Source: Sulfurivermis fontis
Lineage (GTDB): Bacteria > Pseudomonadota > Gammaproteobacteria > Thiohalomonadales > Thiohalomonadaceae
Length of the DNA: 64,000 nt
Direction: 5' to 3'
NCBI RefSeq assembly: GCF_004001245.1
Contig: NZ_AP018724.1
Span: 186,001-250,000 of the forward strand
Shown piece after piece: positions 40,739-59,800 of this stretch. Each line of letters opens with the position of its first letter. The first letter of the stretch is position 1. A program made the position numbers and the translations under genes. The notes below the pieces were generated by a model. That model was not told the DNA's origin. It saw only the letters and a list, made by a program, of their open reading frames with translations, and made no database searches.

Positions 40739-40938
40739 TAGCATCAGCCCAACCCGCCCTCTGATACATCCGTTGCTGGCAGGCGCAGGAGTGGCGTAGG
40801 CGTTGCCACGGTTTCCGTTTGACCATTCCGAAGCCCGCCACTGCCCCACCCCTCGCACTTCTTTACCTTTTCTTCCCTCCCTGCCGCCCCCATTCCGGTA
40901 AAATGGCCGGCCTGCCGTACCCCTTCCCGGAGTTGTCG

Positions 40939-42138: not shown

Positions 42139-42144
42139 CGCGCG

Positions 42145-45100: not shown

Positions 45101-45261
45101 TGCAGGCGCAATTCCTGATCCCGATGGCGATCTCGCTGGTGTTCGGTCTGGCCTTTGCCACCGTGCTGGTGCTGGGGGTGATCCCGGCGCTGCTGTCGTG
45201 GCACGAGCGGTGGGCGGAGCGCCTGGCCGCTTGGCGCGGCAGGGCATCAGAACAAGCGTAG
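42145..45261 (+). CDS. RND-family efflux permease
   Basis: 1038 residues with the 12-helix RND topology and two large periplasmic loops. Helix 4 lies in the region MALGMIVDNAIVVSEHAY, where the aspartate of the proton relay is present (IVDNAIV). Similarity is to the AcrB/MexF-like hydrophobe/amphiphile families rather than the heavy-metal CzcA branch, whose DFGxxxDGA motif is absent. Exported compounds unknown. Operon with the adaptor gene. Confidence 0.92.
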   Translation: MSHGLIGLFARHRVAANMLMLLMVLGGVWALQKLNTQFMPSFDLNYITVRVVWQGASAEDIESGITVPLEQDLRTVDNLKLLSSTSAIGVSAITLEFYPKTDMALALEQVKDLVAQRRNLPETAEEPIITRVIRYEDIGRMLVSGPADLRELRPVVRRIEQELLSHGIARVVFNGLPKEEVAIQVPTARLLELGMSLDAVADSVARTSRDLPAGMAGRDDVAHQLRSLEQRRTLQGFAGIPLRGDAQHGLVTLGDVATIERRPRDGQQLIFHNGKPAVELLLQRSESADALESARSVAEWMAQGRPRLPAGVDVKLYDQSWELIAERIDLLLSNGLGGLVLVLGMLYLFLSGRLAGRVALTIPVSFTAALAVLWLVGGSVNMISLFGLIMALGMIVDNAIVVSEHAYTLHQRGASTLHAAEEAAHRMFSPVMSSSITTVAAFIPLMLIGGIIGQILFDIPLVVICVILATLVITFLILPAQLGKTLQNMDAYVPGPFRMRFDAAFDRFRDHHFRRAVQWSVRNRGITLSGTLALLILSFGLLAGGRLGFTFFPSPDSTILYANVSFVAGTPPQRVERFVEDVHRALWETDAQFGGGIVQTAVPRLRSVIAVGPGSERSGDAFGAVLVELTSPDRREVSNAEFIRAWEARLPRVPGLETFAVGARIGGPPGRDLEIRLTGADAATLKAAALDLAEVLNDYPGVSAVEDDMPFGREQLIYRLTPEGRAAGLTVEAVGRQLRAAYDGRIAQIYQDGLDEIEVRVVLPDNERHRMSSLERFAIVLPDGRSLPFGTVAALVARQGFEALRHADGRLAVNVFGDVDRAQNNAGRVIASLQENVLPQLVARYGIDYSFQGRAADQAETIGDMRMGLVFALLMIYVTLAWVFGSYGWPLVVMAIIPFGLLGAVVGHWVMGMELTILSLFGLFGLTGIVVNNSIILVSFYQTLREEGMDTDTAIVEASCQRLRAVLLTSLTTIVGLVPLLFERSLQAQFLIPMAISLVFGLAFATVLVLGVIPALLSWHERWAERLAAWRGRASEQA

Positions 45262-45333: not shown

Positions 45334-45900
45334 TTAGCGCACGCCCTTGTCGCGCAGGAACTGGCTGTAGCCCTGATCGGTGCCGTTGATGTGGCCGATG
45401 AGCCACTTCTTGAGGAATTGCACGGCCTCCTCGATGGTTTCGTGCGGTCTGGCCTGGTAGCGCTGCATCAGCTCGTTCACCTTGGCGATCATGGCCTCGT
45501 GCTCGCCCTTGTGTTCTGCATAGGTGGGATAGCCGTGGGTCTGCATCAGATCCTCTTCGCGCTTGAAGTGGGTCTTGGTGTAGTCCACCAGGGCATCGAA
45601 GGCCTCGCGCTCGTACTGTGGATCGGTCTGGTAGTGGGCCGCGGTCTGTAGCTGATTGATCAGGTTCAACAGTTTCTTGTGATCGTTGTCGATGGCCTCG
45701 ATGCCGACGCTGTAGGCGTCGCGCCATTCGACAAAGCGGTTGGCGACGATGCGCTTGTGGATGTAGGGCACCAGGGCCAGCACCACGATCAGGGTCCAGG
45801 ATACCGGATTGGTCAGGCTGACCATGAAGCCGAGCAGGATGGCGGTGATGATGACCAGCAGCAGCAGGGCCAGGCCGAACATGCTCCATTGCTTGTTCAT
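45334..45900 (-). CDS. Membrane-anchored bacteriohemerythrin
   Basis: 188 residues from ATG 45900. Two N-terminal hydrophobic segments (about 7-25 and 32-46) precede a hemerythrin domain with ligands in VGIEAIDNDHKKLL, YTKTHFKREEDLM, EHKGEHEAM and WLIGHINGTD, the complete bacteriohemerythrin pattern. It probably binds O2 (or NO) at the inner membrane. A perfect FNR box in class II position lies upstream (45994-46007). Confidence 0.88.
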   Translation of the reverse strand: MNKQWSMFGLALLLLVIITAILLGFMVSLTNPVSWTLIVVLALVPYIHKRIVANRFVEWRDAYSVGIEAIDNDHKKLLNLINQLQTAAHYQTDPQYEREAFDALVDYTKTHFKREEDLMQTHGYPTYAEHKGEHEAMIAKVNELMQRYQARPHETIEEAVQFLKKWLIGHINGTDQGYSQFLRDKGVR

Positions 45901-45965
45901 TGATGTTTCCCCCATGGAGTAGGCAATAGATGATGCGGCCGGAATGGCCTTTCGCACTTGTGGCC

Positions 45966-46007
45966 ATTGTGGGTAATGGCTGGACGCGGGGACTTGATCT
46001 GCATCAA
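45966..46007 (-). promoter_or_regulatory. Class II FNR-type promoter of the hemerythrin gene
   Basis: A perfect FNR/ANR dyad TTGAT-CTGC-ATCAA at 45994-46007 has its centre 41.5 bp upstream of a predicted start at 45959. The -10 CACAAT lies at 45971-45966 on the minus strand. The geometry is that of a class II FNR-activated promoter. Confidence 0.7.
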
Positions 46008-46569: not shown

Positions 46570-47007
46570 TTATGCCGGCGACAATCCGCCCGACGAACAT
46601 CTTGTGAGATTGGCCGGGCCGGTGTGGACGATGCGGGCGTGCCGTTCGGCAGCGGAGTTCAGCGCCTGCTCCAGCGGCATGCCGGTCTCGACACCGTCCA
46701 TGATCATGCGCTGCAGGATGGCGCCGAGCATGGTGATGTTGTCGCGCATGTATTCCTTGATGGGTTGCAATACATGCACATCCAGCGGCGTTTCTTCCGG
46801 CAGGGTGGCGGCGAAGGCGGCGAAGTCGCGGCCGGTGGCCAGCCAGTAGCACATGTCGTAGATCAGGTCGTAGGACTGCTGCAGGGCGGCCGGGTCGTCG
46901 GTGCCGAGATTGGCGCGCACCTCTTCCGCCAGGTCATTCCGGAACTGCTCCAGGCCGTAGCCAACCTCGCCTTTGACGACCTCTTCCGGGGTGAAGTCCC
47001 ATTGCAT
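46570..47007 (-). CDS. Helical protein of unknown function, last gene of molybdoenzyme operon
   Basis: 145 residues, no signal peptide, predicted mainly helical (QWDFTPEEVVKGEVGYGLEQF, IYDMCYWLATGRD, IKEYMRDNITMLGAIL). No known family recognised. It lies 56 bp after the polyferredoxin gene on the same strand and probably belongs to the same transcript. GGAGAACC lies before the ATG. A role in maturation or electron transfer of the molybdoenzyme is only contextual. Confidence 0.55.
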   Translation of the reverse strand: MQWDFTPEEVVKGEVGYGLEQFRNDLAEEVRANLGTDDPAALQQSYDLIYDMCYWLATGRDFAAFAATLPEETPLDVHVLQPIKEYMRDNITMLGAILQRMIMDGVETGMPLEQALNSAAERHARIVHTGPANLTRCSSGGLSPA

Positions 47008-47063
47008 GAAGGTTCTCCTGATGGTCTCGCTCGTTGATTTGAATGGTGCGGCAGTCGGTTTCG

Positions 47064-48155
47064 TCAGCCGAAGATGGCGCTGAAGCTGTCGTTGTCATCG
47101 TTGCACACGGGGCACCCCGCGCCGGGGTTCGCGGTCACGTACAGGCGCCCGCAACGCTCGCACCGCCGCCGCGGCACCATGTGCAGGTCGCGCACCGCGG
47201 CGGTGGCGGCGATGGTTTCGGCCAGGCGCAGGGCGCCGCGGTGGCAGCTCTCCACGCACACGCCGCAGCCGACGCAGCGCGGCGGGTTGAGGCGCAGCAC
47301 CCAGGCGGTCACGGTTTCGCCGGCCAGCAGGGCGCCGGTGGGGCAGACACGGCCGCAGCTGTCGCAGGCGGTGCAGGCGGCGGGGTCGATCACCGGCACG
47401 CCCGCCGGCAGGGCGGGATGGGCGGGCAAGGTGGCATGCTCGCCGGCGCCGTTGACGAGCAGCGCCTGCAGCAATTCGCGCCGTGACGGCAGGAAGGGCG
47501 CGGCGGCGCGTATGGCCCGGGCCGGTGCCGGCGCCTGATCCTGCTGTGGCTGTTGCAACTGGTCGAGGCCGCGGCCGAACAGGCGGCGGAAGAACTGCCG
47601 CCGTTGCGGTTGCGCCTTGACGGCCTCGGGGGCGGCATCGGCCAGGGTCAGTTCGCCCCAGCGCGCCTCGGGGGCGGCGGCGCGCAGTTGCGCCACCGCG
47701 TCGAGCAGCTGCGCCAGGGCCGCGGCGCCAGTGGCGCCGTGGACACAGGCGGCACAGTGGTCGTGGCCGACGAGTTCCACCCGGGTGCCGCGCGCCAGCA
47801 GGGCGGCCAAGGTGACCGGGTCCAGGGCGCCCAGGCAGGGCGCGATGGCCGGGGCCGCGCGATCGGACGGCGCACAGGCGAGGGTCAATTGATGGTCCTG
47901 ACGCGACAACTCCAGCCAGTCGCGCCAGGGCATGTTCTCCGCCTGCAGGGCGCCGGTGGGACAGGCGCTGGCGCACAGGCCGCAGTTCTGGCAGCGCTCG
48001 TGCTTCAGTTCGAAGCCTTCTTCGGTGAGCGTCAGCGCCTCGTGCGGGCAGGCGGCGGCGCAGTTGTCGCACGCGCTGTAGCGGTAGCGATAGCGCGTGC
48101 AGCGCGTGGCGTGGGTGCGCGGATAGGCGCTCAGGTTGGGGGCGGGCGAGTTCAT
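47064..48155 (-). CDS. Polyferredoxin with C-terminal zinc-ribbon-like motif
   Basis: 363 residues. Two N-terminal cluster motifs (SACDNCAAACP and CQNCGLCASACP), a middle region with scattered cysteines (LACAPSD, APCLG, HCAAC), two more ferredoxin motifs (CTACDSCGRVCP, CVGCGVCVESC) and a terminal CERCG...CPVC pair. The first motif lacks the usual leading cysteine spacing (it uses CTRY... further upstream). No signal peptide, so cytoplasmic. Likely electron carrier for the molybdoenzyme operon. It overlaps the periplasmic protein gene by 4 bases. Confidence 0.8.
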   Translation of the reverse strand: MNSPAPNLSAYPRTHATRCTRYRYRYSACDNCAAACPHEALTLTEEGFELKHERCQNCGLCASACPTGALQAENMPWRDWLELSRQDHQLTLACAPSDRAAPAIAPCLGALDPVTLAALLARGTRVELVGHDHCAACVHGATGAAALAQLLDAVAQLRAAAPEARWGELTLADAAPEAVKAQPQRRQFFRRLFGRGLDQLQQPQQDQAPAPARAIRAAAPFLPSRRELLQALLVNGAGEHATLPAHPALPAGVPVIDPAACTACDSCGRVCPTGALLAGETVTAWVLRLNPPRCVGCGVCVESCHRGALRLAETIAATAAVRDLHMVPRRRCERCGRLYVTANPGAGCPVCNDDNDSFSAIFG

Positions 48156-48586
48156 TGGGCCTCGAAGACGTGGGCAGGTTCGCCGGGCTGGCAGGTATCC
48201 CGTGGAATGACGAAGCCGTAGGACGAGGTATCTTCCTCCGGTGCGTTGAGATAGGCCTCGCGTGCCGCTTCATAGGCCGCAGCGCCGCCTGCCGCGGCAT
48301 AGGCGCGTACCCCGGCATCGCGCTTTTCCAGCGCGCCGGCGATGGCCAGCGCCTGCTCGTCGCTGTCGCCGATCACCAGGGCCACACCGGGGCGGGTGCG
48401 CGTGGTGGGGCGATAGATCGCCGCGCCGGCCAGCGCGGTTACCGGTGTGGCCGTGCGGGCGTCGATCAGTTGCAGGCGCAGGCCATAATCGTCCATCAGT
48501 TTGATCATGATTGTGTTGTCGGCCAGTTCGGCGGCGGGCACGCCGGTGGATAACAGGAGCAAGAAGAGGGCGGGCGCTGATTTCAT
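48152..48586 (-). CDS. Periplasmic rhodanese-fold protein without active-site cysteine
   Basis: 144 residues with a signal peptide (MKSAPALFLLLLSTGVPAAE). The core VALVIGDSDEQALAIAGALE followed by VRAYAAAGGAAAY resembles the second half of a rhodanese domain, but the catalytic cysteine position reads aspartate/serine (GDSD). It ends FVIPRDTCQPGEP, carrying one conserved-looking cysteine. Possibly a sulfur- or metalloid-binding partner. It overlaps its neighbours by 4 bases on each side, so it belongs to the operon. Confidence 0.55.
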   Translation of the reverse strand: MKSAPALFLLLLSTGVPAAELADNTIMIKLMDDYGLRLQLIDARTATPVTALAGAAIYRPTTRTRPGVALVIGDSDEQALAIAGALEKRDAGVRAYAAAGGAAAYEAAREAYLNAPEEDTSSYGFVIPRDTCQPGEPAHVFEAQ

Positions 48587-49287
48587 CCGTTTTGTGTCGT
48601 AGTGGGGGCGGCCGGGGGAACGGCGGCCGCAAGCCGTTCCAGTTCGACCGCATTGCAGGCGTCGGCGTTCACGATGAGCTGGCGCACGCCACCGTGCGCT
48701 ATCCACGGCGCAGGATCGCTGCCCCCTTCGGCGAAGGTCAGCCACAGGCGGTCGCCGAGTTCTTCACTCAGTTCGGCACAGAGGCCGAGGTCGTCCGCTG
48801 TCGCCTGGTGCAGCGAGATCACCAGTTGTTCCACGCCCTGCCGGGCCATTTCGCGGGCGAACCAGGCGGCATCGGTGCCGGTCCCCGTGCCGTCTGCCAG
48901 CAGCAGCTCCCAGCGCGGCACCGGGCAGGTGGGCATGACGAAGCTGAAGTCGGCGTTGGATTCCCGATCCAGTGACCAGCTCACCGCCATGCGCCGCGCC
49001 GGCAGCCACAGGCCGATGCGCTGGGTTCCGAAGCGGGCGATGGCGTCCTGGACCATGGTGGTGTCGAGCAGTGCCTTCTCGCCCAGCAGGACGCGGCTCG
49101 CGCCGGCCGCCAGCAGTGTCTCGATGCGCGCCAGTGCGCCGCGTTCCATGACGACATGCGCCCCGGTGCAGAGCGGTGTCGCGGTTTCGTCGTCGACCAT
49201 GAACAGCGGATGGTCGGGCAGCGCAAAGCCGGGCGCCGACCAGACGCCGACGGTAAGCATGGCAGCAGTTGGCAGCGGGGCGTTCAT
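48583..49287 (-). CDS. HisA/HisF-like barrel protein
   Basis: 234 residues from ATG 49287, which overlaps the upstream stop. Segments resemble the ProFAR isomerase/HisF half-barrel: LLAAGASRVLLGEKALLD, ARFGTQRIGLWLPAR and LADGTGTGTDAAWF, then a GGVRQLIVNAD-like end. The catalytic aspartates of HisA are not retained at the expected strand ends. Histidine synthesis is therefore unlikely. A role in the molybdoenzyme operon, for example a cofactor or ligand-handling step, is unknown. Confidence 0.5.
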   Translation of the reverse strand: MNAPLPTAAMLTVGVWSAPGFALPDHPLFMVDDETATPLCTGAHVVMERGALARIETLLAAGASRVLLGEKALLDTTMVQDAIARFGTQRIGLWLPARRMAVSWSLDRESNADFSFVMPTCPVPRWELLLADGTGTGTDAAWFAREMARQGVEQLVISLHQATADDLGLCAELSEELGDRLWLTFAEGGSDPAPWIAHGGVRQLIVNADACNAVELERLAAAVPPAAPTTTQNG

Positions 49288-49670
49288 ACGGCGATCCGTT
49301 CGGTCTGGAAGGACAGGGGCGGCGCGCCCAGCCACAAGGTCTGCGACTTGCCGTCGAGGCGGTCGCGCAGCGCGCGCACGCCCTCCAGGATCGGCCCGAT
49401 GCGCAGGCCGGCATAGGCCGGGGCGAACTCGGGCAGGGTGCGCAGGGCATCGTCCACGAACAGTTCGGCGCTCTCCTCGTTGCGCTCGGCGGCGAAGTGG
49501 AAGGCCAGGGCGGCAAAGGCCATGGCCTGGAGGAAGCGCGCCAGCACATCGCGTTCGCCGCTGGTGCTTTCCTGGATGATGCGCGACCAGCGTTCGTTGA
49601 TCCAGTCGTGCACCGTGTACATGTCGCCGCTGTTCCAGTGGTCGGCCAGTTCGTCCCAGAGCAGGAGCAT
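49284..49670 (-). CDS. DUF309-like helical protein
   Basis: 128 residues. WDELADHWNSGDMYTVHDWI and NERW resemble the DUF309 pattern (a FNxGxYxxAHExxE-type segment), followed by helices with FAALAFHFAAERNEESAELF. Cytoplasmic by prediction. It starts 16 bp after torD and overlaps the barrel gene. Function unknown; DUF309 proteins often accompany other enzyme operons. Confidence 0.5.
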   Translation of the reverse strand: MLLLWDELADHWNSGDMYTVHDWINERWSRIIQESTSGERDVLARFLQAMAFAALAFHFAAERNEESAELFVDDALRTLPEFAPAYAGLRIGPILEGVRALRDRLDGKSQTLWLGAPPLSFQTERIAV

Positions 49671-49686: not shown

Positions 49687-50436
49687 TCAGGCGCCGCAGC
49701 GCATGGGTTCGTCGGCGCCGGCCAGGGGCGGCAGCTCCAGCTTGCCCTGATCCTCGTCGACCAGGTCGAGACCCAGCTGTTCCAGTTCGAACACGGCGAA
49801 GGCGTCGAGCAGGGCGGCCATCTCGCGGTAGAAGGAATGGCTGGCCGCGCGTTCCACCAGGGTCGCATAGCCGCGTACCCAGCGGCCCAGGTGCTGGGCC
49901 CAGAAACGCTTTACGGTCTTCTCCAGGCGGCGTTGTTCCTTGTCGTCGCCCTGTGCCATGGCGGTGACGATGCGGTCCATCAGCGCCGCCACGAATTGCA
50001 GCTCCACGCCGAGCTGATCGTCGAACACCTGGAAGCGTCCTGCACCGACGACAAAGCCTTCCTTGCCGTAAAACTCGCGTACGGCAAAGCACGGTGCCTG
50101 CTGGAAGCCGCCGTGCAGGCGCACCGATTCCACCGGCGGGAAGCCGCCGGAAGAGGCGAACAACACGGTGTATTCGCAGGCCAGGGTTTCCTGCAATTGC
50201 TCCAGGGGCGGATCGAGAAAGTCGCTGTCGAACGACACGCCCAGTTCGCCCAGGGCCTGCAGTGATTCCGGGCTGCGCAATGCGGCGAGATAGTCGCGGC
50301 CAGGTTCCTCGATGAAGGCGCCGGCCAGCAGGCGGTAGTGCCGGGCGCGCGCGGTGTATTCCTCGGCGCTGGCGGCGGCGGGCGCGACCGCCTCCTGGCG
50401 CACGCTTTCCAGGGGAATGGTAAACAGATCGGACAT
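49687..50436 (-). CDS. TorD/DmsD-family molybdoenzyme chaperone
   Basis: 249 residues, all-helical TorD-type protein with the family segment ACEYTVLFASSGGFPPVESVRLHGG and the distal VKRFWAQHLGRWV. It binds the Tat signal and assists cofactor insertion into the catalytic subunit encoded just upstream (50514-53147). Position D in a BCAD operon. GGAGG lies before the ATG on the minus strand. Confidence 0.88.
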   Translation of the reverse strand: MSDLFTIPLESVRQEAVAPAAASAEEYTARARHYRLLAGAFIEEPGRDYLAALRSPESLQALGELGVSFDSDFLDPPLEQLQETLACEYTVLFASSGGFPPVESVRLHGGFQQAPCFAVREFYGKEGFVVGAGRFQVFDDQLGVELQFVAALMDRIVTAMAQGDDKEQRRLEKTVKRFWAQHLGRWVRGYATLVERAASHSFYREMAALLDAFAVFELEQLGLDLVDEDQGKLELPPLAGADEPMRCGA

Positions 50437-50513: not shown

Positions 50514-53147
50514 TCAATGGCCGCTGACAGGCTTGTGCTTGACGCTGTCCGGTCCGGCCCAGGAGGCCATCTCCGGATGCATCTTGCGGTGCATGTCGCC
50601 GACATAGGTGTAACGCATGCCTTCTTTGTAGAACTGCACGTGCTTGTTCCAGTCGGACACCATGTCGCCGTACTTGTCGCCGGGCTTGGCCTTGCTCACC
50701 TTCACCACCGTGTCATACCAGCCCTGCGAGCCGCCGATGGGGTCGGCGACGGCCGGAATGATGTGGTTGGGGTGCACGCCCTTGTCGTCCCACCAGACGT
50801 TCTTCAGGTCCGGGTCGTCCGCCGCGCCGAACTGGCCCGCCGCCTCCTTCAGTTTGAGCTGGGCCAGGCGGCCGTAGCCCCAGTGGCCGTGGGCGGTGGA
50901 GACGGCGACCACCTTCGGGTGGATGCCCTCGGTGACCAGGGCCTTGGTGACGATATGGCCCACCGCGCTTTCGATGCGGATCAGGTCGCCGGTCTTGATG
51001 CCCAGCTTCTCCGCCGTCTCGGTGCCGAGCCAGGCGGGGTTGGCATGGGAGATTTCGGCCAGCCACTTCACCGCCGCGGTACGCGATTGCTTGTGCACGT
51101 TGAGCTTGAAGGTGGTGAGGATCATCTCATCGTCCTTCATGTTCTCATGCCAGGGCATGCGCTTGAAGGTGGGCATCGGGTTGAAGCCGTATTCGGCCCA
51201 TTCCGGTACACGCACATGGATCAGACGATCACTGGTGGGGAAGCCCACGCAGTTCTTGCCCTTGCGCCGTACGCCGATGATCTTGCCGTTTTTGTGAATG
51301 AACCCTTGGGCATCGACGGTGGCGCCGGCCATGTCGGCGGCCGACAGTTCCTTCATATGCAGGCCGTATTCCGCGGCAATCTCGCGCCCGGACTTGTCGG
51401 AAATCTTGCCGGTCTTGGGATTGAGCTTGCCGTAGATGGGCCATACACCGTGCTTCTTGAGGAAGTCGAGGCCGCCGGCTTCCTTCAGGCCCGGAATGTT
51501 CTCGAACTGCTTGCGCATGTACTCTTCCGGGTCCTTGAAGTCCCAGTACTTCTTCATGCCGCGCGAGCCGTCCGGGTCCAGCTTGTGGATGATGTCACGC
51601 AGGTAGACCTTGGTCTCGCGTCCCTCGCCCAGCGGCTTGATGACCGGCTGGCGGATGGCCAGCCACGGCCACAGCGAGCTGGGCATGGACTCCGGCTCCC
51701 AGCGCTCCAGGTAGGGCACGTCCGGCAGGATGATGTCGGCCAGCTGCGCCTCCTCGCCCATGAACGGCGTCAGGCAGACGTAGAAGGGGATCAGCTCCTC
51801 GTTGCGGAACAGTTCGCCCCACACCGCGTCGGCGCCCGGATTGGTGTAGACCGGGTTGTCCTGATAGGAGAAGTAGACCTTGATCTTCTGTTTGCCCTCG
51901 GCGATCCAGAACGGCACCAGGTGGCTGACCTTGTGGCCGGCGAAGGGATATTCGTCGGGGTGGGCCAGGTAGGACGGGGTGGACGGCTTGGGCGGAACCG
52001 GCTGCGGCTGGTCGTAACCCATGCCGCGGGGCAGGCAGTAGCCGCCGCGCTTCTCGATGTTGCCGGTGAGGATCGGCAGCATCATGCAGGCCTTTTCGTT
52101 GTAGGCGCCGTACATGTGCTTGGCCGGGCCGCGGTAGGTGTACGTCGTTGCCGGCTTGGTGAGGGCGAACTCGCGCGCGATGCGCTCGAGGGTTTCCACC
52201 GGCACGCCCGACAGCTTGGAGGCCCACTCCGGCGTGTACTGCTTGTAGTGGTCCTTCAGCTCCTGCACGGTGACATTGGTCCAGGTCTCGATGAAGTCCG
52301 AGTCCTGCAGATCATCGCGCAGGATGATGTGGCCCAGGGCCAGGGCCACGGCGCCGTCGGTGCCCGGATAGACCGGGATCCATTCGTCGGAGAAACCGGC
52401 GGTGTTGGACAGGCGCACGTCGAAGGTAACGATCTTCATGTTGCTGTCGATACGGCCTTCGGTGACACGCTGCGAGAAGGGATTGTGGAAATAGGCAGCC
52501 TCCAGCACGTTCGAACCGAAGTTCAGCACGTACTTGGTGTTGGCGAAGTCCGGCATCTCGATGTCCGGACCCCAGGTATGCTCCATGCCGGCCTTCTTCG
52601 ACGACTCGCACACCGAGGTGTGGTTCATGATGGTGGCCGAACCCAGGGTGTGCATGAAGCGAGTCAGCACGCCACCGGTGCGGTTGCGGCCCCACTTCAG
52701 CATGATCTCGTTGGGATGGCCGTTCTTCAGCACGTCGTCCAGGCGCGCGGCGATTTCGTTGTAGGCCTCGTCCCAGGAGATGCGCTTCCACTTGCCCTCA
52801 CCGCGCTTGCCGACGCGCTTCAGGGGATAGAGGATGCGATCCGGGTCATAGGTGTACCACATGCCGGCATTGCCCTTGGCGCACAGGCGGCCGCGGGTGG
52901 ACACGTGTTCCGGGTTGCCCTCCAGTTTGACGATGCGGCCGTTTTCGATATAGGCCATGGCGCCGTCCTGGATGTTGCAGACGTGGCAGTTGGTGGGGAT
53001 GGCCTGGCGCTCCTTGAGCGTCACCGGTCCGATATCGCGGCCGCCCAGGTCGTTCTCCATGGCGCGCAGCATCGACGGTGCCGCCATGGCCGCGGCGGTG
53101 GTACCGGCGCTGGCCTTCAAAAAGGTACGGCGAGTGAGTTTCAACAT
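50514..53147 (-). CDS. Tat-exported molybdopterin oxidoreductase, catalytic subunit (A)
   Basis: 877 residues with a twin-arginine signal (LTRRTFLKAS). The cluster motif is NCHVCNIQDGAM...RLCAKG, i.e. Cx2Cx3Dx27C, with aspartate at the third position. The Mo ligand is probably the cysteine in HTSVCESSKKAG. Domains of the DMSO-reductase superfamily follow (GNAGMWYTYDPDRI, RGPAKHMYGAYNEKA, NPGADAVWGELFRN). With the NrfD and ferredoxin subunits it would exchange electrons with the quinone pool. The order B-C-A-D and the regulators recall Arx, Psr and Ttr systems. The oxidised or reduced substrate cannot be assigned. Confidence 0.85.
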   Translation of the reverse strand: MLKLTRRTFLKASAGTTAAAMAAPSMLRAMENDLGGRDIGPVTLKERQAIPTNCHVCNIQDGAMAYIENGRIVKLEGNPEHVSTRGRLCAKGNAGMWYTYDPDRILYPLKRVGKRGEGKWKRISWDEAYNEIAARLDDVLKNGHPNEIMLKWGRNRTGGVLTRFMHTLGSATIMNHTSVCESSKKAGMEHTWGPDIEMPDFANTKYVLNFGSNVLEAAYFHNPFSQRVTEGRIDSNMKIVTFDVRLSNTAGFSDEWIPVYPGTDGAVALALGHIILRDDLQDSDFIETWTNVTVQELKDHYKQYTPEWASKLSGVPVETLERIAREFALTKPATTYTYRGPAKHMYGAYNEKACMMLPILTGNIEKRGGYCLPRGMGYDQPQPVPPKPSTPSYLAHPDEYPFAGHKVSHLVPFWIAEGKQKIKVYFSYQDNPVYTNPGADAVWGELFRNEELIPFYVCLTPFMGEEAQLADIILPDVPYLERWEPESMPSSLWPWLAIRQPVIKPLGEGRETKVYLRDIIHKLDPDGSRGMKKYWDFKDPEEYMRKQFENIPGLKEAGGLDFLKKHGVWPIYGKLNPKTGKISDKSGREIAAEYGLHMKELSAADMAGATVDAQGFIHKNGKIIGVRRKGKNCVGFPTSDRLIHVRVPEWAEYGFNPMPTFKRMPWHENMKDDEMILTTFKLNVHKQSRTAAVKWLAEISHANPAWLGTETAEKLGIKTGDLIRIESAVGHIVTKALVTEGIHPKVVAVSTAHGHWGYGRLAQLKLKEAAGQFGAADDPDLKNVWWDDKGVHPNHIIPAVADPIGGSQGWYDTVVKVSKAKPGDKYGDMVSDWNKHVQFYKEGMRYTYVGDMHRKMHPEMASWAGPDSVKHKPVSGH

Positions 53148-53178: not shown

Positions 53179-54039
53179 TCAGTAATAGGTTTGCAGGATC
53201 TGGCCGCCGTACAGGATCGAGTAGCGCAGCGCCATGCCGCCCACCAGGATCAGTACCGAAGCGGCCATCATGCCGACCTGTTGCCGTCCGAACGGCGCCA
53301 GCAACAGCGCGATGGGGAGTGCCGTGCCGGCGATGATGCCCACGCCGATGAAGATCATGCCCAGCGTGCCGGTGGTGAGGAACATGAAAGTCAGTTCCGC
53401 ACCGACGCCGCCGTAGGCGGTGGTGCCGAGCAGGGAAATGAGCATTGCGCCCACCGCACCCGCGCTCCACAGCATCAACCGGCGCAGCGCGCTGGCCAGC
53501 TTCTCGTCGCCCTGGTTCAGGAGGGTGGCCACGGCGGCGCCCGACAGCAGCGACAGGCCGACGAACAGTACCGGCATCAACGGCGTGCTCCACACCGGGC
53601 GGTGCTGGTGCACGGTGAGGTCGAAGCCGGTATAGATCGGCAGTCCCAGAGCGAGCAGGCTGCCGATCACGGCCAGCCGCTTGCTGTTGACCGCGTCGCC
53701 CTTGCGCATCATGAAGAAATACAGCACCGACACCAGGCCGAACGACATCAGGTTGAGCGCGCCCCAGGCCAGCGGCGAACGGAAGTTCATGTACGCCGGG
53801 TTGATGGTGTTGAGGAAGCGGCCCGGCTGGGAAAGGTCGCCGATCAACAGCAGACCGCCGACTGCCAGCAGCACGAAGGACGCGTAAAAGGCTTTCTCGC
53901 GCAGCGGCCGATAGTAATCTTCACGGAACCAGGACAGGGCCGAGAAGAAGAACAGCGCCGACGCGATGCCGATGACGAAGAAATAGATGGCGTAGGCACT
54001 GGGCCAAGCCATCGTGTGAAACACCGTGTATTCGTTCAT
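53179..54039 (-). CDS. NrfD-family membrane subunit (C)
   Basis: 286 residues with eight predicted helices, NrfD/PsrC type: WPSAYAIYFFVIGIASALFF at the N-terminus and later YMNFRSPLAWGALNLMSFGL, IYTGFDLTVHQHRPVWSTPL. It anchors the complex and carries the quinone site facing the periplasm in homologues. No heme histidine pairs are expected in this family. Its start is 12 bp past the stop of the ferredoxin subunit gene. Confidence 0.92.
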   Translation of the reverse strand: MNEYTVFHTMAWPSAYAIYFFVIGIASALFFFSALSWFREDYYRPLREKAFYASFVLLAVGGLLLIGDLSQPGRFLNTINPAYMNFRSPLAWGALNLMSFGLVSVLYFFMMRKGDAVNSKRLAVIGSLLALGLPIYTGFDLTVHQHRPVWSTPLMPVLFVGLSLLSGAAVATLLNQGDEKLASALRRLMLWSAGAVGAMLISLLGTTAYGGVGAELTFMFLTTGTLGMIFIGVGIIAGTALPIALLLAPFGRQQVGMMAASVLILVGGMALRYSILYGGQILQTYY

Positions 54040-54051
54040 GGTGATCTCCCG

Positions 54052-54762
54052 TCAGATATGCTTGTTGCGGTTGAACACGGCACGCTCGATATCGGCCTGC
54101 TCATCCCTCTTGTAGACCGCACGGCCATAATCGGTCAGGTTGCGGTCGGCGCCGATGTAGAACACGTGCGGCTTGGTGCCCTGTTCCGGTCGCAGCACCT
54201 GGGTCGCATGCTTGGCCACCAGCTGCGACACCTCGCTGTTGGGGTCATTGAGGTCGCCGAAGATGCGCGAGCGGCCGACGCAGGTCTGCACGCAGGCGGG
54301 GACCAGCCCCTGAATCACGCGGTGGTAGCAGAAGGTGCACTTGTCCACCACCTTGGTGATATCGGTGTAGGTGCGGTGCTCCGGCAGCATGAAGCGGGCG
54401 TTGTAGGGACAGGAGGCCATGCAGGCCTTGCAGCCGATGCAGCGGTCATAGTGCTGCAGCACGAAGCCGCCATCTTCCAGTTTGTAGGTGGCGCCCACCG
54501 GACAGGCGCGTACGCACGGGGGATCGTCGCAGTGGTTACACAGGCGCGGCAGGAATTGCTTTTTCACGGTTGGGTACTTGCCGGTCACCCGATAGGGAAC
54601 CCAGGTACGGAATACCCCCAGTGGAACGTCATACTCCGCTTTGCACGCCACCTGGCACGCCATGCAGCCGATGCAGCGGCGCACGTCGATCACCATGGCG
54701 TAGCGCCGGACGCCGGGTTTTCCCCGTGTCTCGGTCGACGACATGAGCAGTTCTTGAGTCAT
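54052..54762 (-). CDS. Four-cluster ferredoxin subunit (B)
   Basis: 236 residues with four [4Fe-4S] motifs in order: CIGCMACQVAC, CNHCDDPPCVRAC, CIGCKACMASC and CTFCYHRVIQGLVPACVQTC. Typical DmsB/PsrB/ArxB-type electron-transfer subunit. GAGGAG is 7 bases before ATG 54762. First gene of the operon, about 80 bp downstream of a strong sigma-54 promoter. Confidence 0.95.
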   Translation of the reverse strand: MTQELLMSSTETRGKPGVRRYAMVIDVRRCIGCMACQVACKAEYDVPLGVFRTWVPYRVTGKYPTVKKQFLPRLCNHCDDPPCVRACPVGATYKLEDGGFVLQHYDRCIGCKACMASCPYNARFMLPEHRTYTDITKVVDKCTFCYHRVIQGLVPACVQTCVGRSRIFGDLNDPNSEVSQLVAKHATQVLRPEQGTKPHVFYIGADRNLTDYGRAVYKRDEQADIERAVFNRNKHI

Positions 54763-55029: not shown

Positions 55030-55046
55030 TTGGCATGGTATGAGCA
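55030..55046 (+). promoter_or_regulatory. Possible sigma-54 promoter of the X-S-R genes
   Basis: TTGGCATGGTATGAGCA has GG-N10-GC spacing (GG 55032-55033, GC 55044-55045) and a good -24, but the -12 lacks the TT of TTGC. Start predicted near 55057, 37 bp before ATG 55094. Confidence 0.4.
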
Positions 55047-55093
55047 GGTGGTTTGGTCGTGACGGACTGTATCTGGAGGATCGAAGGGTGGTG

Positions 55094-55969
55094 ATGCGGA
55101 AAATCCGCCGGCTACTGGTGGCCGCCTGGCTGTTGCTTCCGGGGTGGTTGCCCACGGCCTGGGCGGCGGCCGCGGGGGAGCCGGTGCGCATCGGCCTGAC
55201 GCCGGTGTTTCTCGACGAGCAGACCTCGTTCGTCGAATCGTGGCGCGGCTATCTCGAAAAGAGGCTGGGGCGGCCGGTGATGTTCACCCAGCGCAGCAGC
55301 TACCGCGACATCATGGATCTGCTGTTGCAAGGCAAGCTCGATTTCGCCTGGGTGTGCGGCTATCCCTACGTGCGCTACCAGTCCGAGTTGCAGCTTACCG
55401 CCGTGCCGCTCTATCAGGGGGAACCGCTGTACCGGGCGTATCTCATCGTGCCGGTGCGCGACACCGCGACCAGGTCGCTGTCCGATCTGCGCGACAAGCT
55501 GTTCGCCTACTCGGACATCGACTCCAATTCCGGCTATCTGGTGATCCAGCACCAATTGCTGAACACGGGGTTTGGCGCGGGGACATTTTTCCGCCGCACG
55601 TTCTTCACCGGCGCCCATCGCAAGGTGGTGGAGGCGGTGGCCGCCGGTGTGGCCGATGGGGGTAGCGTGGACGGATACGTATGGGATGTATTGTCCCGCT
55701 CCAACCCGGAGCTGACCTCACGTACCCGGGTGGTCGCGCGCACGCCGGTGTACGGTTTTCCGCCGGTGGTGGCGCGGCGTGGCATAACTGCGGAATCGAT
55801 GCGTGCGGTACAGGCTACGCTCCTGTCCATGCATCAGGACGTCGAAGGGCGGGCGCTGCTGACGCGTCTCGGCCTGGATGGATTCACGACGGGAAGTCCG
55901 GCGCTGTACGACGACATACGCCGGATGATGCTGACGGTACGGGGGGCCGGTGGTGTTGCACAACCTTAG
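55094..55969 (+). CDS. PhnD-like periplasmic binding protein (X, sensor component)
   Basis: 291 residues from ATG 55094 with a signal peptide (MRKIRRLLVAAWLLLPGWLPTAWAAA). PhnD/phosphonate-type periplasmic binding domain: RIGLTPVFLDEQTSFVESW, LDFAWVCGYPYVRYQ, SDIDSNSGYLV and DGYVWDVLS. The cysteine in WVCGYPY is a candidate ligand, as for AioX. In AioXSR and ArxXSR such a protein presents arsenite to the kinase. The kinase gene overlaps its end by 20 bp. Ligand here unknown. Confidence 0.85.
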   Translation: MRKIRRLLVAAWLLLPGWLPTAWAAAAGEPVRIGLTPVFLDEQTSFVESWRGYLEKRLGRPVMFTQRSSYRDIMDLLLQGKLDFAWVCGYPYVRYQSELQLTAVPLYQGEPLYRAYLIVPVRDTATRSLSDLRDKLFAYSDIDSNSGYLVIQHQLLNTGFGAGTFFRRTFFTGAHRKVVEAVAAGVADGGSVDGYVWDVLSRSNPELTSRTRVVARTPVYGFPPVVARRGITAESMRAVQATLLSMHQDVEGRALLTRLGLDGFTTGSPALYDDIRRMMLTVRGAGGVAQP

Positions 55970-57401
55970 CCTGCGCTACAAGGTTCCCATCCGTTCCAGT
56001 CTCCTGATCCTGGTCACGGCGCTGCTGGTCACCGCAGCGCTGATGTACCGGGCCTATGACGACATGCGGCGCGATTTGTTGTTCAACGCCGAGGGCATGA
56101 GCCGCCTGTTGGTGCGTACCTTGGTACCGGCGATGCTGCATGACGATGTGTGGCAAGTATACGAGGCAATCCACGCCGCTTATCCGTATGTAGATGACGG
56201 CGCCGCACAGGAGAGCGAACTCATTCTGGTGCTGGATGTGGCCGGCAACACCTACGTATCCAATCAGCCGACCCGTTTCCCCATGCTGTCCGACCCGGCG
56301 GCGAAAGGTGCCGAGTTTGCATTGCTCCAGCGTGCTGCCTTGCAGCAGGGTGAGGTCGCTCCCGCGATCGTGGATCTCGACCTGGCGGAATATCTCTATC
56401 TGGTCATGCCGATCATCTCCGACCGTGTGCGCCTCGGCAGTCTGGTGCTGGGGTATCCGCGGGCGTTGTTCCTGCCACGTTTTCTGACCATCGCCAAGCG
56501 CGCGGCCTGGATGACGTTGCTCAGCCTGACAGTATTGCTGCCCATCACCTGGTATTGGGCACGGCGCCTGGCGCAGCCCATGGTGCAGCTGGCCAACTGC
56601 ATGGAGCGCCTGAGTACTACAACGCCGGAGCAATTGCACTGCGACTTGTTCGAGTCCCAGGACGAAATCGGGCGTCTTGGCCTCAGTTTCCGCCGTATGT
56701 TGGCGGAGTTGCAGGAAAAACAGGCGCTGGAGCGGCAGATCGTGGTGGGCGACCGGCTAAGTGCCATCGGCCGTCTCACCTCGTCCATCGCCCACGAGAT
56801 CAACAATCCCCTTGGCGGCATGCTCAACGCCATCGATACCTTCAAGCGGCACGGCAATTGCGACAATCCGCGCACCCATCGCACCATGTCGTTGTTGGAG
56901 CGTGGTCTGCTGCAAATTCGCGATACGGTGGGCGCACTGCTGGTGGAAGCCAAGGCCGGTAGCCACTCCCTGACACCGCAGGATATCGAGGATATTCATA
57001 CGCTGGTGGCACCGGAGGCGGGCAAGAAATCGGTATGCATCGACTGGCATAACAATTTACGTGTACCCATCGGCTTGCCGGCGACACCGGTGCGGCAGAC
57101 CCTGCTCAACCTGCTGCTCAATGCAGTGCATGCCGCCAACGATGGCGGTATGGTGCGTTGCCTGGTGTGGAAGGATGATCATCGCCTGCACATGCAAATA
57201 GCCAATGACGGCCAATACATCCCGGCGGAAAAGATTGAGCATCTGTTCGAACCCTTCTCGCCGCTGTCGGAACAGGGGCATGGTCTCGGTCTGTGGGTTT
57301 GCTACCAGATTGCACAGCAGTTGGGTGGTGATATTCGTGTGCATAGTGAACCGGAATACACCGTGTTCACCGTGGCCCTGCCTTATGGAGAGCAAGCGTG
57401 A
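55950..57401 (+). CDS. Sensor histidine kinase (S)
   Basis: 483 residues from GTG 55950. A membrane helix (about 17-33), a periplasmic sensor region (about 35-180), a second helix, HAMP (ARRLAQPMVQLANCMERLS), the dimerisation box with phospho-histidine SSIAHEINNPLGGML, and an ATPase domain with N-box LLNLLLNAVHAAND and GHGLGLWV. It presumably senses the state of the X protein and phosphorylates R. The GTG of R overlaps its stop (GTGA). Confidence 0.9.
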   Translation: MVLHNLSLRYKVPIRSSLLILVTALLVTAALMYRAYDDMRRDLLFNAEGMSRLLVRTLVPAMLHDDVWQVYEAIHAAYPYVDDGAAQESELILVLDVAGNTYVSNQPTRFPMLSDPAAKGAEFALLQRAALQQGEVAPAIVDLDLAEYLYLVMPIISDRVRLGSLVLGYPRALFLPRFLTIAKRAAWMTLLSLTVLLPITWYWARRLAQPMVQLANCMERLSTTTPEQLHCDLFESQDEIGRLGLSFRRMLAELQEKQALERQIVVGDRLSAIGRLTSSIAHEINNPLGGMLNAIDTFKRHGNCDNPRTHRTMSLLERGLLQIRDTVGALLVEAKAGSHSLTPQDIEDIHTLVAPEAGKKSVCIDWHNNLRVPIGLPATPVRQTLLNLLLNAVHAANDGGMVRCLVWKDDHRLHMQIANDGQYIPAEKIEHLFEPFSPLSEQGHGLGLWVCYQIAQQLGGDIRVHSEPEYTVFTVALPYGEQA

Positions 57402-58750
57402 ACAAACTTTGTCTGGTGGAAGACGATGCCATTATGGGCGAGTCGCTGTGCGACCGTTTCGAGCTGGAGGGCTTCGACGTTGATTGGTTCCAGAATGCCC
57501 CGGAGGCCTTCGACTCCATCGGCCGTATAGCCTATGGGCTGGTCATCAGCGACATACGCATGCCGGGCATGAGTGGCGAGCAGCTGTTCGAGCAGGTGCT
57601 GGAGCGCTATGCACAGCGGCCGCCGTTCCTGTTCATCACCGGATATGGCGCCATCGACAAGGCGGTGCGTCTGCTCAAACTGGGCGCCGCCGACTACATC
57701 ACCAAGCCGTTCGACCTGGATGATCTGGTGCAGAAGGTGCGTGAACTTAGCGCGTCCGCCGGAACCGCGGCCGCGGGCGAAGCGACGCCGGCGCTGGGCG
57801 TCTGTCCCACCATGCGTCACATGGAGGAGTCACTGCCGCACCTGGCGCAGCGCGCCAATACCATTCTACTCACCGGCGAGTCGGGGGTGGGCAAGGAGCA
57901 TGTGGCGCGCCTGATTCACCACTACGGCAGCGGCGATGCCGCTCCCTTCGTGGCGGTCAATTGCGGGGCCCTCACCGAGACCCTGCTGGAAGCCGAACTG
58001 TTCGGCTACGAGAAGGGCGCCTTCACCGGCGCGCTGCGCACCAAGAAGGGCGTGTTCGAACTGGCCCACGGCGGTACGCTGCTGCTGGACGAGATCGGCG
58101 AAATGCCCTTGCCCATGCAGGTGCGCCTGCTGCGCGCCATCCAGGAGCGCACCGTGGTGCGCGTCGGCGGCGAACGGCCGATCCGGGTCGACCTGCGCCT
58201 GATCTGCGCCACCAACCGCGACCTCAAGTGCATGGCGGAGCAGGGGCATTTCCGCGAGGATCTGTACTACCGCATCAATGTTATCCACCTGCGCATCCCG
58301 CCGTTGCGTGAGCGTAAGGAGGACGTGCTGTGGTTTGCACGCCGTTTCCTGCACGAGTACACCGCTGCCCATCCCGGCGAGGGCAAGGTGCTGCACCCCG
58401 AGGCCGAGCGGGCGATGCTGGATTATCCCTGGCCGGGCAACATCCGTGAGTTGCGCCATACCCTGGAGCGCGCCTGTATTCTCACCCGCGGCGAGATCCT
58501 CATGCCGCAGGACCTGTTCGAGGGCGGCATCGATGAGCCGGCACCACCGCCGCCGCCGGGCCAGCCGGCCTGCGACGATCTCGGCCAGTACATGCGCGCC
58601 TGCGAACGCGCCTACATCCTGCGCGCGCTGGATTCCCATCAATGGAAGATCGGGGATACCGCCGGCTATCTCGGCATCAGTCGCAAGAATCTGTGGGAGA
58701 AGATGAGGAAATACGCCATCCAGGCCGTACAGTCGGAGGATGCCGAGTGA
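57398..58750 (+). CDS. Sigma-54-dependent response regulator (R, NtrC/AtoC type)
   Basis: 450 residues: receiver (about 1-120; phosphoacceptor in LVISDIRMPGMSG, lysine in ITKPFD), AAA+ domain (about 135-370) with Walker A GESGVGKEHVA, the sigma-54 contact loop GAFTGAL, DEIGEMPL and arginine finger region, and a C-terminal Fis-type helix-turn-helix (DTAGYLGISRKNLWEKMRKY). It activates sigma-54 promoters by enhancer binding, most likely the GTTAC-N6-GTAAC dyads nearby. Only plausible activator of the four sigma-54 promoters found in the window. Confidence 0.93.
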   Translation: MNKLCLVEDDAIMGESLCDRFELEGFDVDWFQNAPEAFDSIGRIAYGLVISDIRMPGMSGEQLFEQVLERYAQRPPFLFITGYGAIDKAVRLLKLGAADYITKPFDLDDLVQKVRELSASAGTAAAGEATPALGVCPTMRHMEESLPHLAQRANTILLTGESGVGKEHVARLIHHYGSGDAAPFVAVNCGALTETLLEAELFGYEKGAFTGALRTKKGVFELAHGGTLLLDEIGEMPLPMQVRLLRAIQERTVVRVGGERPIRVDLRLICATNRDLKCMAEQGHFREDLYYRINVIHLRIPPLRERKEDVLWFARRFLHEYTAAHPGEGKVLHPEAERAMLDYPWPGNIRELRHTLERACILTRGEILMPQDLFEGGIDEPAPPPPPGQPACDDLGQYMRACERAYILRALDSHQWKIGDTAGYLGISRKNLWEKMRKYAIQAVQSEDAE

Positions 58751-58762
58751 CCGGGTGAGGAG

Positions 58763-58779
58763 CGGCACCGATTTTGCTT
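58763..58779 (+). promoter_or_regulatory. Sigma-54 promoter of moaA
   Basis: CGGCACCGATTTTGCTT: GG (58764-58765) -N10- GC (58776-58777) with GGCAC and TTGCT intact. Only the T before GG is replaced. The predicted start near 58789 precedes ATG 58814 by about 25 bp. It overlaps no other gene, as the R stop is at 58750. Confidence 0.7.
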
Positions 58780-58813
58780 GTGTTTTTTACAGGCAATAAC
58801 CGCGAGAACAGCC

Positions 58814-59800
58814 ATGCAAGCGTTGACCGACAACTTTGGACGCCGCATCACCTATCTGCGCCTGTCGCTGACCGACCACTGCAACCTGCGCTGCCGCTAT
58901 TGCATGCCGGAAGAGGCCCACGGCAGCGGCCGGGTCGGGCGCCTGACGGAGGAGGAGACGGTGCGTCTGATCGGCCTGTTCGCCCGCATGGGGGTGGACA
59001 AGGTACGCCTGACCGGCGGCGAGCCGCTGCTGCGGCGTGATTTGGTAACACTGGCCGGTGCCATTGCCGCCCTGCCCGGGGTGCGCGACCTGTCCCTGTC
59101 CACCAACGCCCTGCTGCTGGAAAAGAACGCGGCAGCCCTGGCGGCCGCCGGGGTGCGCCGCCTCAATATCTCCCTCGACTCCCTGCACGCGGAACGCTTC
59201 GCCGACATCACCGGCGGCGGCGATCTGACGGCTGTCCTGCGCGGCATCGAGGCGGCGCGGGCCGCCGGCATGACGCCGATCAAACTCAACATGGTGGCGC
59301 TGAACGGCATCAACGACGATGAAATCACCACCATGGCGGAGTTCGCCCAGGCGCGCGGTCTGGAGCTGCGCTACATCGAAACCATGCCGGTGGGTGGCCA
59401 GGGCGAGTGGAGCATGCGCCATCACCTGCCCGCCGAGCAGATCATGGCGCGGCTGCAACGGCATTTCGGCTCCGACCTGTTGCCGCAGCACGAAGGCGCC
59501 GGCGGCCCCGCACGCATGTACCGCGTCGGTGCCCGCGGCCCGCGCATCGGCGTCATCTCCGCGGTGTCGCGCCACTTCTGCGCCAGTTGCAACCGCGTGC
59601 GTCTCACTGCCGAAGGCGATTTGGTGCTTTGTCTGGGCAACGAACACAGCGTATCGCTGCGCGAACCGCTGCGGGCGGGGATGGACGACGCGGCGCTGTG
59701 CGGACTGATCCGCGCCGCCATCCTGCGCAAACCCGAGCGGCACGACTTCAATGCCCCCCAGGCGGCGCCGCTGCGGCCGATGTACGCCTTGGGTGGTTAA
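58814..59800 (+). CDS. moaA: GTP 3',8-cyclase (molybdenum cofactor biosynthesis)
   Basis: 328 residues from ATG 58814 (GAGAA upstream); an in-frame ATG at 58778 falls in the sigma-54 promoter. Radical-SAM motif CNLRCRYC and the C-terminal second cluster CASCNRVRLTAEGDLVLCLG, with the final GG (YALGG) essential in MoaA. It converts GTP to the cyclic precursor of molybdopterin. Its sigma-54 promoter ties cofactor supply to the molybdoenzyme regulon. Confidence 0.95.
   Translation: MQALTDNFGRRITYLRLSLTDHCNLRCRYCMPEEAHGSGRVGRLTEEETVRLIGLFARMGVDKVRLTGGEPLLRRDLVTLAGAIAALPGVRDLSLSTNALLLEKNAAALAAAGVRRLNISLDSLHAERFADITGGGDLTAVLRGIEAARAAGMTPIKLNMVALNGINDDEITTMAEFAQARGLELRYIETMPVGGQGEWSMRHHLPAEQIMARLQRHFGSDLLPQHEGAGGPARMYRVGARGPRIGVISAVSRHFCASCNRVRLTAEGDLVLCLGNEHSVSLREPLRAGMDDAALCGLIRAAILRKPERHDFNAPQAAPLRPMYALGG

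What the first reader, a model, noticed from the sequence alone, without database searches (positions are those of the whole stretch)
46570..49670. Five-gene tail of unknown proteins behind the molybdoenzyme genes
A DUF309-like protein, a HisA/HisF-like barrel without the expected aspartates, a periplasmic rhodanese-fold protein without its cysteine and a polyferredoxin are joined by 4-bp overlaps (ATGA), and an unknown helical protein follows. Tight coupling suggests shared function, but none is a usual maturation factor. The barrel is the most surprising member.
Basis: partly seen in the sequence, partly recalled or inferred. Interest (0 to 1): 0.6.

Follow-up and report, generated by a model that had tools for sequence, protein, structure and literature searches.

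The report
Arsenite-sensor-linked molybdoenzyme operon with odd helpers
The five odd genes are the fixed rear half of a nine-gene respiratory molybdenum-enzyme operon, found in scattered denitrifying and sulfur bacteria, that sits beside genes for an arsenite-type sensor, so it may be an unrecognised kind of arsenic respiration enzyme with its own helper proteins.

Summary
Five genes at 46570-49670 (minus strand) follow an NrfC-NrfD-molybdoenzyme-TorD core; three of the junctions are 4-bp overlaps. A scan of 84,980 genomes found the barrel only inside this operon, in the same gene order, in 21 loci in all. The catalytic subunit forms its own clade, outside ArxA/ArrA and PsrA/PhsA. The neighbouring regulator is an AioX-type periplasmic sensor whose seven arsenic-pocket residues are all kept. 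In one genome the operon is followed directly by a true arx arsenite-oxidase operon; on an Azoarcus plasmid it lies next to ars genes.

The barrel is a real HisA/HisF relative (Pfam; HisA is the best fold match) with an invariant proline where HisF has Asp130. The rhodanese lacks its active-site cysteine but keeps an invariant C-terminal one. The polyferredoxin is a full-length homologue of ArxB2, so one tail gene is a known but unexplained arx component. A 57-60% identical sister lineage keeps the barrel, rhodanese and polyferredoxin but swaps the rest.

Best reading: an arsenite-responsive, quinone-linked arsenic oxidoreductase of a new lineage, with the tail as its dedicated accessory set. 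The substrate and the accessory roles are inferred, not shown.

The parts
54052..54762 (-). NrfC/PsrB-like four-cluster [4Fe-4S] subunit, 236 aa (first gene of the operon)
   Evidence: orthologue in the same place in every uncut locus
53179..54039 (-). NrfD/PsrC quinone-interacting membrane anchor, 286 aa
   Evidence: PF03916 E 1.5e-32
50514..53147 (-). Tat-exported MopB catalytic subunit, 877 aa, Cys ligand expected in NHTSVCESSKK, own clade
   Evidence: PF00384, TAT signal; tree; motifs
49687..50436 (-). TorD/DMSO-reductase-type chaperone, 249 aa
   Evidence: PF02613 E 4.7e-16
49284..49670 (-). DUF309-like all-helical protein, 128 aa
   Evidence: PF03745 E 4.4e-5, sub-threshold; relative above cut-off
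48583..49287 (-). HisA/HisF-derived barrel, 234 aa, Pro in place of HisF Asp130, invariant SNADF loop
48152..48586 (-). Rhodanese-fold protein with predicted Sec signal, no active-loop Cys, invariant C-terminal IPxxTC motif, 144 aa
47064..48155 (-). Cytosolic polyferredoxin, 363 aa: two [4Fe-4S] pairs, central Cys domain, C-terminal CxxC..CxxC; full-length ArxB2 homologue
46570..47007 (-). Helical protein, 145 aa, no known family or matching fold
55040..55969 (+). AioX-family periplasmic binding protein (divergent regulator), all seven arsenic-pocket residues kept
   Evidence: PDB AioX E 7.8e-69; pocket columns
55950..57401 (+). Sensor histidine kinase of the XSR module
   Evidence: conserved beside the operon
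57398..58750 (+). Sigma-54-dependent response regulator of the XSR module
58778..59800 (+). MoaA-like molybdopterin biosynthesis gene; a homologue lies near the operon in some loci

Best explanation
This is one nine-gene system for building and running a periplasmic, quinone-linked molybdoenzyme that acts on an arsenic compound, switched on by an arsenite-type sensor. Shown by sequence: a Tat-exported catalytic subunit with an FeS subunit and an NrfD anchor, a TorD chaperone, an AioX-type sensor with two-component system, and five tail genes kept in fixed order. Inferred: the catalytic subunit oxidises arsenite to arsenate and passes electrons through the FeS subunit and NrfD to quinone, in support of nitrate or other respiration. 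Inferred, weaker: TorD, the ArxB2-like polyferredoxin, the catalytically dead barrel, the DUF309-like and the helical protein form the cytosolic crew that matures and proof-reads the complex before export, with the polyferredoxin supplying electrons and the barrel acting as a non-enzymatic binding scaffold. The rhodanese-fold protein serves in the periplasm, using its invariant C-terminal cysteine to hold a sulfur or arsenic species.
For: Invariant synteny in 21 loci across beta- and gammaproteobacteria with unrelated flanks. AioX-family sensor beside the operon in nearly all loci that can be judged, with 7/7 pocket residues and the AioX V56/F57 loop ([quoted passage not shown] The operon is followed by ArxXSR plus arxB2-A-B-C-D in G646, by an Arx-type XSR in L015, and lies next to arsC-arsD-arsA-ACR3 on pAZKH. 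Polyferredoxin homologous to ArxB2 over its whole length, 134-147 bits for most ArxB2 against 33 or less for NrfC-type proteins; PMC6549141 describes arxB2 as apparently specific to arx clusters. The catalytic subunit shares a GR motif and C-terminal GHWxYGR with ArrA/ArxA, absent from the PhsA reference. Barrel, rhodanese and polyferredoxin recur in a sister lineage at 57-60% identity.
Against: The catalytic subunit is outside the ArxA/ArrA clade and lacks their diagnostic motifs; its best NCBIfam match is thiosulfate reductase PhsA, below cut-off. The window's genome already has an AioA, and G646 and the L018 host have ArxA, so a further arsenite oxidase would be redundant there. Most flanks hold no ars genes. 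The AioX pocket is also kept in ArrX, which binds arsenate, and in sensors next to other uncharacterised enzymes (L045-L047). L023 has no XSR module in its 20 kb. No direct evidence on any tail protein.
Confidence: 0.45

Rival explanations
1. The enzyme acts on thioarsenates: it cleaves or forms the As-S bond of monothioarsenate, a structural analogue of thiosulfate, with the rhodanese-fold protein handling the sulfur. It is still arsenite-regulated, but complements rather than duplicates Aio or Arx.
For: Closest curated match of the catalytic subunit is thiosulfate reductase PhsA while the sensor is of arsenite type; a rhodanese-fold partner is conserved in both lineages; it co-occurs with AioA or ArxA; several hosts are sulfur oxidisers (Thiobacillus, Hydrogenophilales, Chromatiales). 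PMC6620896 notes the thiosulfate-monothioarsenate analogy and an unknown enzyme in thioarsenate oxidation.
Against: Hosts include non-sulfidic denitrifiers (Thauera, Aromatoleum); the rhodanese has lost its sulfur-transfer cysteine; nothing direct.
Confidence: 0.2
2. The enzyme is a PsrA/PhsA/SrrA-like reductase of sulfur or selenium species, or another oxyanion, and the AioX-like sensor recognises that compound; the arsenic neighbours are coincidental.
For: PhsA is the best curated match and Thermus PsrA the best PDB match; XSR modules also sit by other uncharacterised enzymes.
Against: Tree places PhsA/PsrA outside the clade; seven of seven arsenic-pocket residues kept; adjacency to arx and to ars; ArxB2 homologue.
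Confidence: 0.25
3. The tail makes or modifies a small molecule or cofactor for the enzyme rather than assisting its assembly: a HisA/HisF-like barrel here, and a methylglyoxal-synthase-like protein plus a glycosyltransferase in the sister lineage, look like remnants of phosphosugar chemistry.
For: PF00977 barrel; PF02142 MGS-like and GT4 genes in L043/L044.
Against: HisF Asp130 replaced by invariant Pro; the MGS-like and GT genes are absent from the window's lineage; no known arsenic enzyme needs such a cofactor.
Confidence: 0.08

Closest known systems
Arx anaerobic arsenite oxidase operon (arxXSR, arxB2ABCD)
   Same: XSR sensor module, MopB catalytic subunit, FeS subunit, NrfD anchor, TorD chaperone and an ArxB2-type polyferredoxin; the two operons are adjacent in G646
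   Different: Catalytic subunit is in another clade without the XGRGWG motif; gene order differs (NrfC-NrfD-MoA-TorD first, polyferredoxin eighth); adds DUF309-like, barrel, rhodanese and helical genes
PsrABC / PhsABC polysulfide and thiosulfate reductases
   Same: Periplasmic Cys-type MopB enzyme with FeS subunit and membrane anchor; best NCBIfam and PDB matches
   Different: 360 bits against a 694-bit PhsA cut-off; separate branch in the tree; no XSR, ArxB2 or tail in the phs reference locus
AioX/ArxX/ArrX arsenic-sensing binding proteins
   Same: About 43% identity to AioX over 253 residues; 7/7 pocket residues and AioX-type signalling loop
   Different: Next to a new enzyme type; ligand untested
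HisA/HisF (PF00977)
   Same: Detectable sequence homology and best fold match
   Different: Catalytic Asp130 position is Pro; degenerate barrel, TM about 0.6; found only in this operon type
Sister operon of L043/L044 (this work)
   Same: 57-60% identical catalytic subunit, ArxB2-type polyferredoxin, divergent barrel directly upstream of the rhodanese gene; AioX-type sensor nearby in L044
   Different: No DUF309-like or helical gene found; has GT4, MGS-like, two Mrp-type NTPases and cytochrome genes instead; an archease gene is near it in L044

Membership tests
ArxA/ArrA catalytic subunit | Motif XGRGWG (ArxA) or (R/K)GRY (ArrA) near the pocket | tested here: not met
   Window system has GRNRTGG (15 of 16 GRNR(T/S)GG, L019 GRDRSGG); motifs from PMC6549141
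ArxA/ArrA catalytic subunit | Falls in the ArxA/ArrA clade | tested here: not met
   Own 16-member clade, 100/99 support; ArrA model 191 of 1600 bits
Arx-type operon architecture | XSR regulators, FeS subunit, NrfD anchor, TorD and ArxB2 around a Tat-exported MopB subunit | tested here: met
PsrA/PhsA/SrrA | NCBIfam PhsA score above cut-off | tested here: not met
   360 of 694 bits
AioX/ArxX/ArrX sensor subfamily | Seven pocket residues Y88 C106 Y131 S161 S163 H192 D210 | tested here: met
   All 14 sensors of the system's own module
AioX/ArxX/ArrX sensor subfamily | Binds an arsenic oxyanion | not testable with these tools
   Needs isothermal titration calorimetry
HisA/HisF enzymes | PF00977 homology | tested here: met
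   18/18 members; window 24.5 bits, cut-off 23.6
HisA/HisF enzymes | Two catalytic aspartates (HisF D11 and D130 equivalents) | tested here: not met
   D130 position is invariant Pro95; the D11 region does not align
Rhodanese | PF00581 fold | tested here: met
   9/17 relatives; sister homologues above cut-off
Rhodanese | Active-loop cysteine | tested here: not met
   Replaced by Ala or Gly in the family
ArxB2 | Full-length homology with the same cysteine layout | tested here: met
DUF309 (PF03745) | Score above gathering cut-off | tested here: inconclusive
   Window 23.5, L024 27.5, cut-off 27

The most novel reading that the evidence does not exclude
A further family of respiratory arsenic molybdoenzymes besides Aio and Arx/Arr (arsenite or thioarsenate oxidoreductase), whose assembly needs a dedicated crew that includes a repurposed, catalytically dead HisA/HisF barrel and a cysteine-relocated periplasmic rhodanese.
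Probability: 0.4. Interest if true: 0.8.

Novelty: new variant of a known kind. Interest (0 to 1): 0.62.

Why it matters
If right, arsenic respiration has another enzyme lineage that surveys using arxA, aioA or arrA as markers do not see, in widespread denitrifiers (Thauera, Aromatoleum, Azoarcus) and sulfur oxidisers. It also gives the unexplained ArxB2 protein a wider family, and offers a case of a histidine-biosynthesis barrel turned into an accessory factor. Cultured hosts exist, so the substrate question can be tested directly.

Tried and rejected
Barrel as a normal HisA or HisF: rejected (invariant Pro at Asp130). Catalytic subunit as ArxA, ArrA or PhsA: rejected by motifs, scores and tree. 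L010's second enzyme (MoA2) as ArxA: not supported; its place in the tree is unsure (long branch). Central polyferredoxin domain against PDB: no match. Helical protein fold against PDB: no match at E below 1. Search for ars genes in other flanks: only a permease related to one in the Cereibacter arsenic cluster, in L014, and weak hits. Literature: no description of this operon found in the open library. An arsenite-induced Thioalkalivibrio jannaschii operon with a glycosyltransferase and a rhodanese beside arx and ars (PMC6620896) resembles the sister L043/L044 type, but its sequence could not be compared here, so it is a lead only. A first pass missed the sister lineage's barrel because of the ORF overlap filter; found on re-reading.

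Full report
What is there. Three junctions in the tail are 4-bp overlaps, and the same overlaps recur in many relatives; dN/dS between the window and its nearest relative is 0.05-0.33 for all nine genes. Upstream and divergent lie a PhnD/AioX-like binding protein, a histidine kinase, a sigma-54 response regulator and moaA.

How fixed it is. A search of the window's own order found the barrel in 6 of 20 genomes. A pattern scan of 84,980 genomes returned 17 loci, all in this operon. With Azoarcus KH32C plasmid pAZKH, the window itself, G018 and G646 this makes 21 distinct loci in beta- and gammaproteobacteria, including Thauera aminoaromatica S2, Aromatoleum toluclasticum, A. buckelii, Accumulibacter and Thiobacillus. 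Wherever the contig reaches, the gene order is the same; only L017 lacks the helical gene. Outside the operon the flanks are unrelated, so it is a discrete, transferable module. No catalytic subunit of 76% identity or more was found without the tail in two even draws of 369 and 399 genomes.

The arsenic link. The binding protein matches AioX in the PDB at E 7.8e-69. The seven residues that form the AioX arsenic pocket (PMC5908839) are present in all 14 sensors of the system's own module, with the AioX-type V56/F57 loop that is missing in ArrX. In that paper AioX and ArxX bind arsenite and ArrX arsenate, each the substrate of its own enzyme; the pocket alone does not separate the two. In G646 the operon is followed directly by ArxXSR and a complete arxB2-A-B-C-D operon whose ArxA is 62% identical to Sulfuricella ArxA; L015 is followed by a sensor that groups with that Arx-type sensor (99/95); on pAZKH the operon lies next to arsC, arsD, arsA and ACR3. 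The window's genome has an AioA elsewhere, with no XSR genes near it. Most other flanks carry no ars genes, and L023 shows no XSR module.

The enzyme. The catalytic subunit forms a clade of its own (100/99), sister to L043/L044, outside ArxA/ArrA and PsrA/PhsA. Long branches make the deeper order unsure. It lacks the ArxA and ArrA signature motifs but shares the GR of that motif and the C-terminal GHWxYGR with them; the PhsA reference has neither. Its best curated match is PhsA, well below cut-off. So it is not a member of these families, though the operon is built like arx.

The tail proteins. The polyferredoxin is a full-length homologue of ArxB2, with the same two FeS pairs, central cysteine domain and C-terminal CxxC pairs; most ArxB2 proteins score 134-147 bits with its profile (Cereibacter ArxB2 93), NrfC-type proteins 33 or less. 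ArxB2 has been described as apparently specific to arx clusters and of unclear role (PMC6549141). The barrel is a true HisA/HisF relative by Pfam, PDB profile and predicted fold (pLDDT 86.7), but HisF Asp130 is an invariant proline, and the invariant SNADF motif lies in a low-confidence loop. The rhodanese-fold protein has lost the active-loop cysteine and keeps an invariant C-terminal cysteine. The DUF309 assignment is borderline. The helical protein is confidently folded (pLDDT 90.5) but matches no PDB structure.

The sister lineage. L043 and L044 (57-60% identity in the catalytic subunit) keep the ArxB2-type polyferredoxin, and a divergent PF00977 barrel directly upstream of the rhodanese gene (profile comparison E 1e-5); L044 also has the AioX-type sensor. 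DUF309-like and helical genes were not found; a glycosyltransferase, an MGS-like protein and two Mrp-type NTPases appear instead. The shared accessory core is therefore barrel, rhodanese and polyferredoxin.

Interpretation. Shown: operon integrity, conservation, family relations, sensor pocket, adjacency to arsenic genes. Inferred: an arsenite-responsive, quinone-linked arsenic oxidoreductase, most likely arsenite-oxidising, with thioarsenate chemistry as the main rival. Inferred more weakly: the tail matures and services the complex. No experiment bears on any of these steps.

Noticed in passing
L010:13604-20504 and L066:9006-12372: Other uncharacterised MopB enzymes with an NrfC-like gene lie beside this operon (L010, behind a second XSR module) or behind the adjacent arx operon (G646).
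   Followed up: partly
L045, L046, L047: A further enzyme type (about 42% identity) with an AioX-like XSR module, a NapC-type multihaem cytochrome (Pfam-checked in L045) and TorD but no tail.
   Followed up: partly
L043:6382-13511, L044:2152-9143: Sister operon carries a glycosyltransferase, an MGS-like protein, two Mrp-type NTPases and a small cytochrome c-like gene between TorD and the rhodanese; an archease gene lies nearby in L044.
   Followed up: partly
window 45334-45967: Hemerythrin-like ORF just downstream of the operon; an ORF with a similar start lies downstream of the operon in L008.
   Followed up: no
window 40819-45261: RND efflux pair next to the operon; similar ORFs lie in the same place in L008.
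   Followed up: no
G000:C1:2041949-2044267 (L055, L062): The window's genome has an AioA arsenite oxidase with moaA near it and no XSR genes detected in the 19 kb examined.
   Followed up: partly
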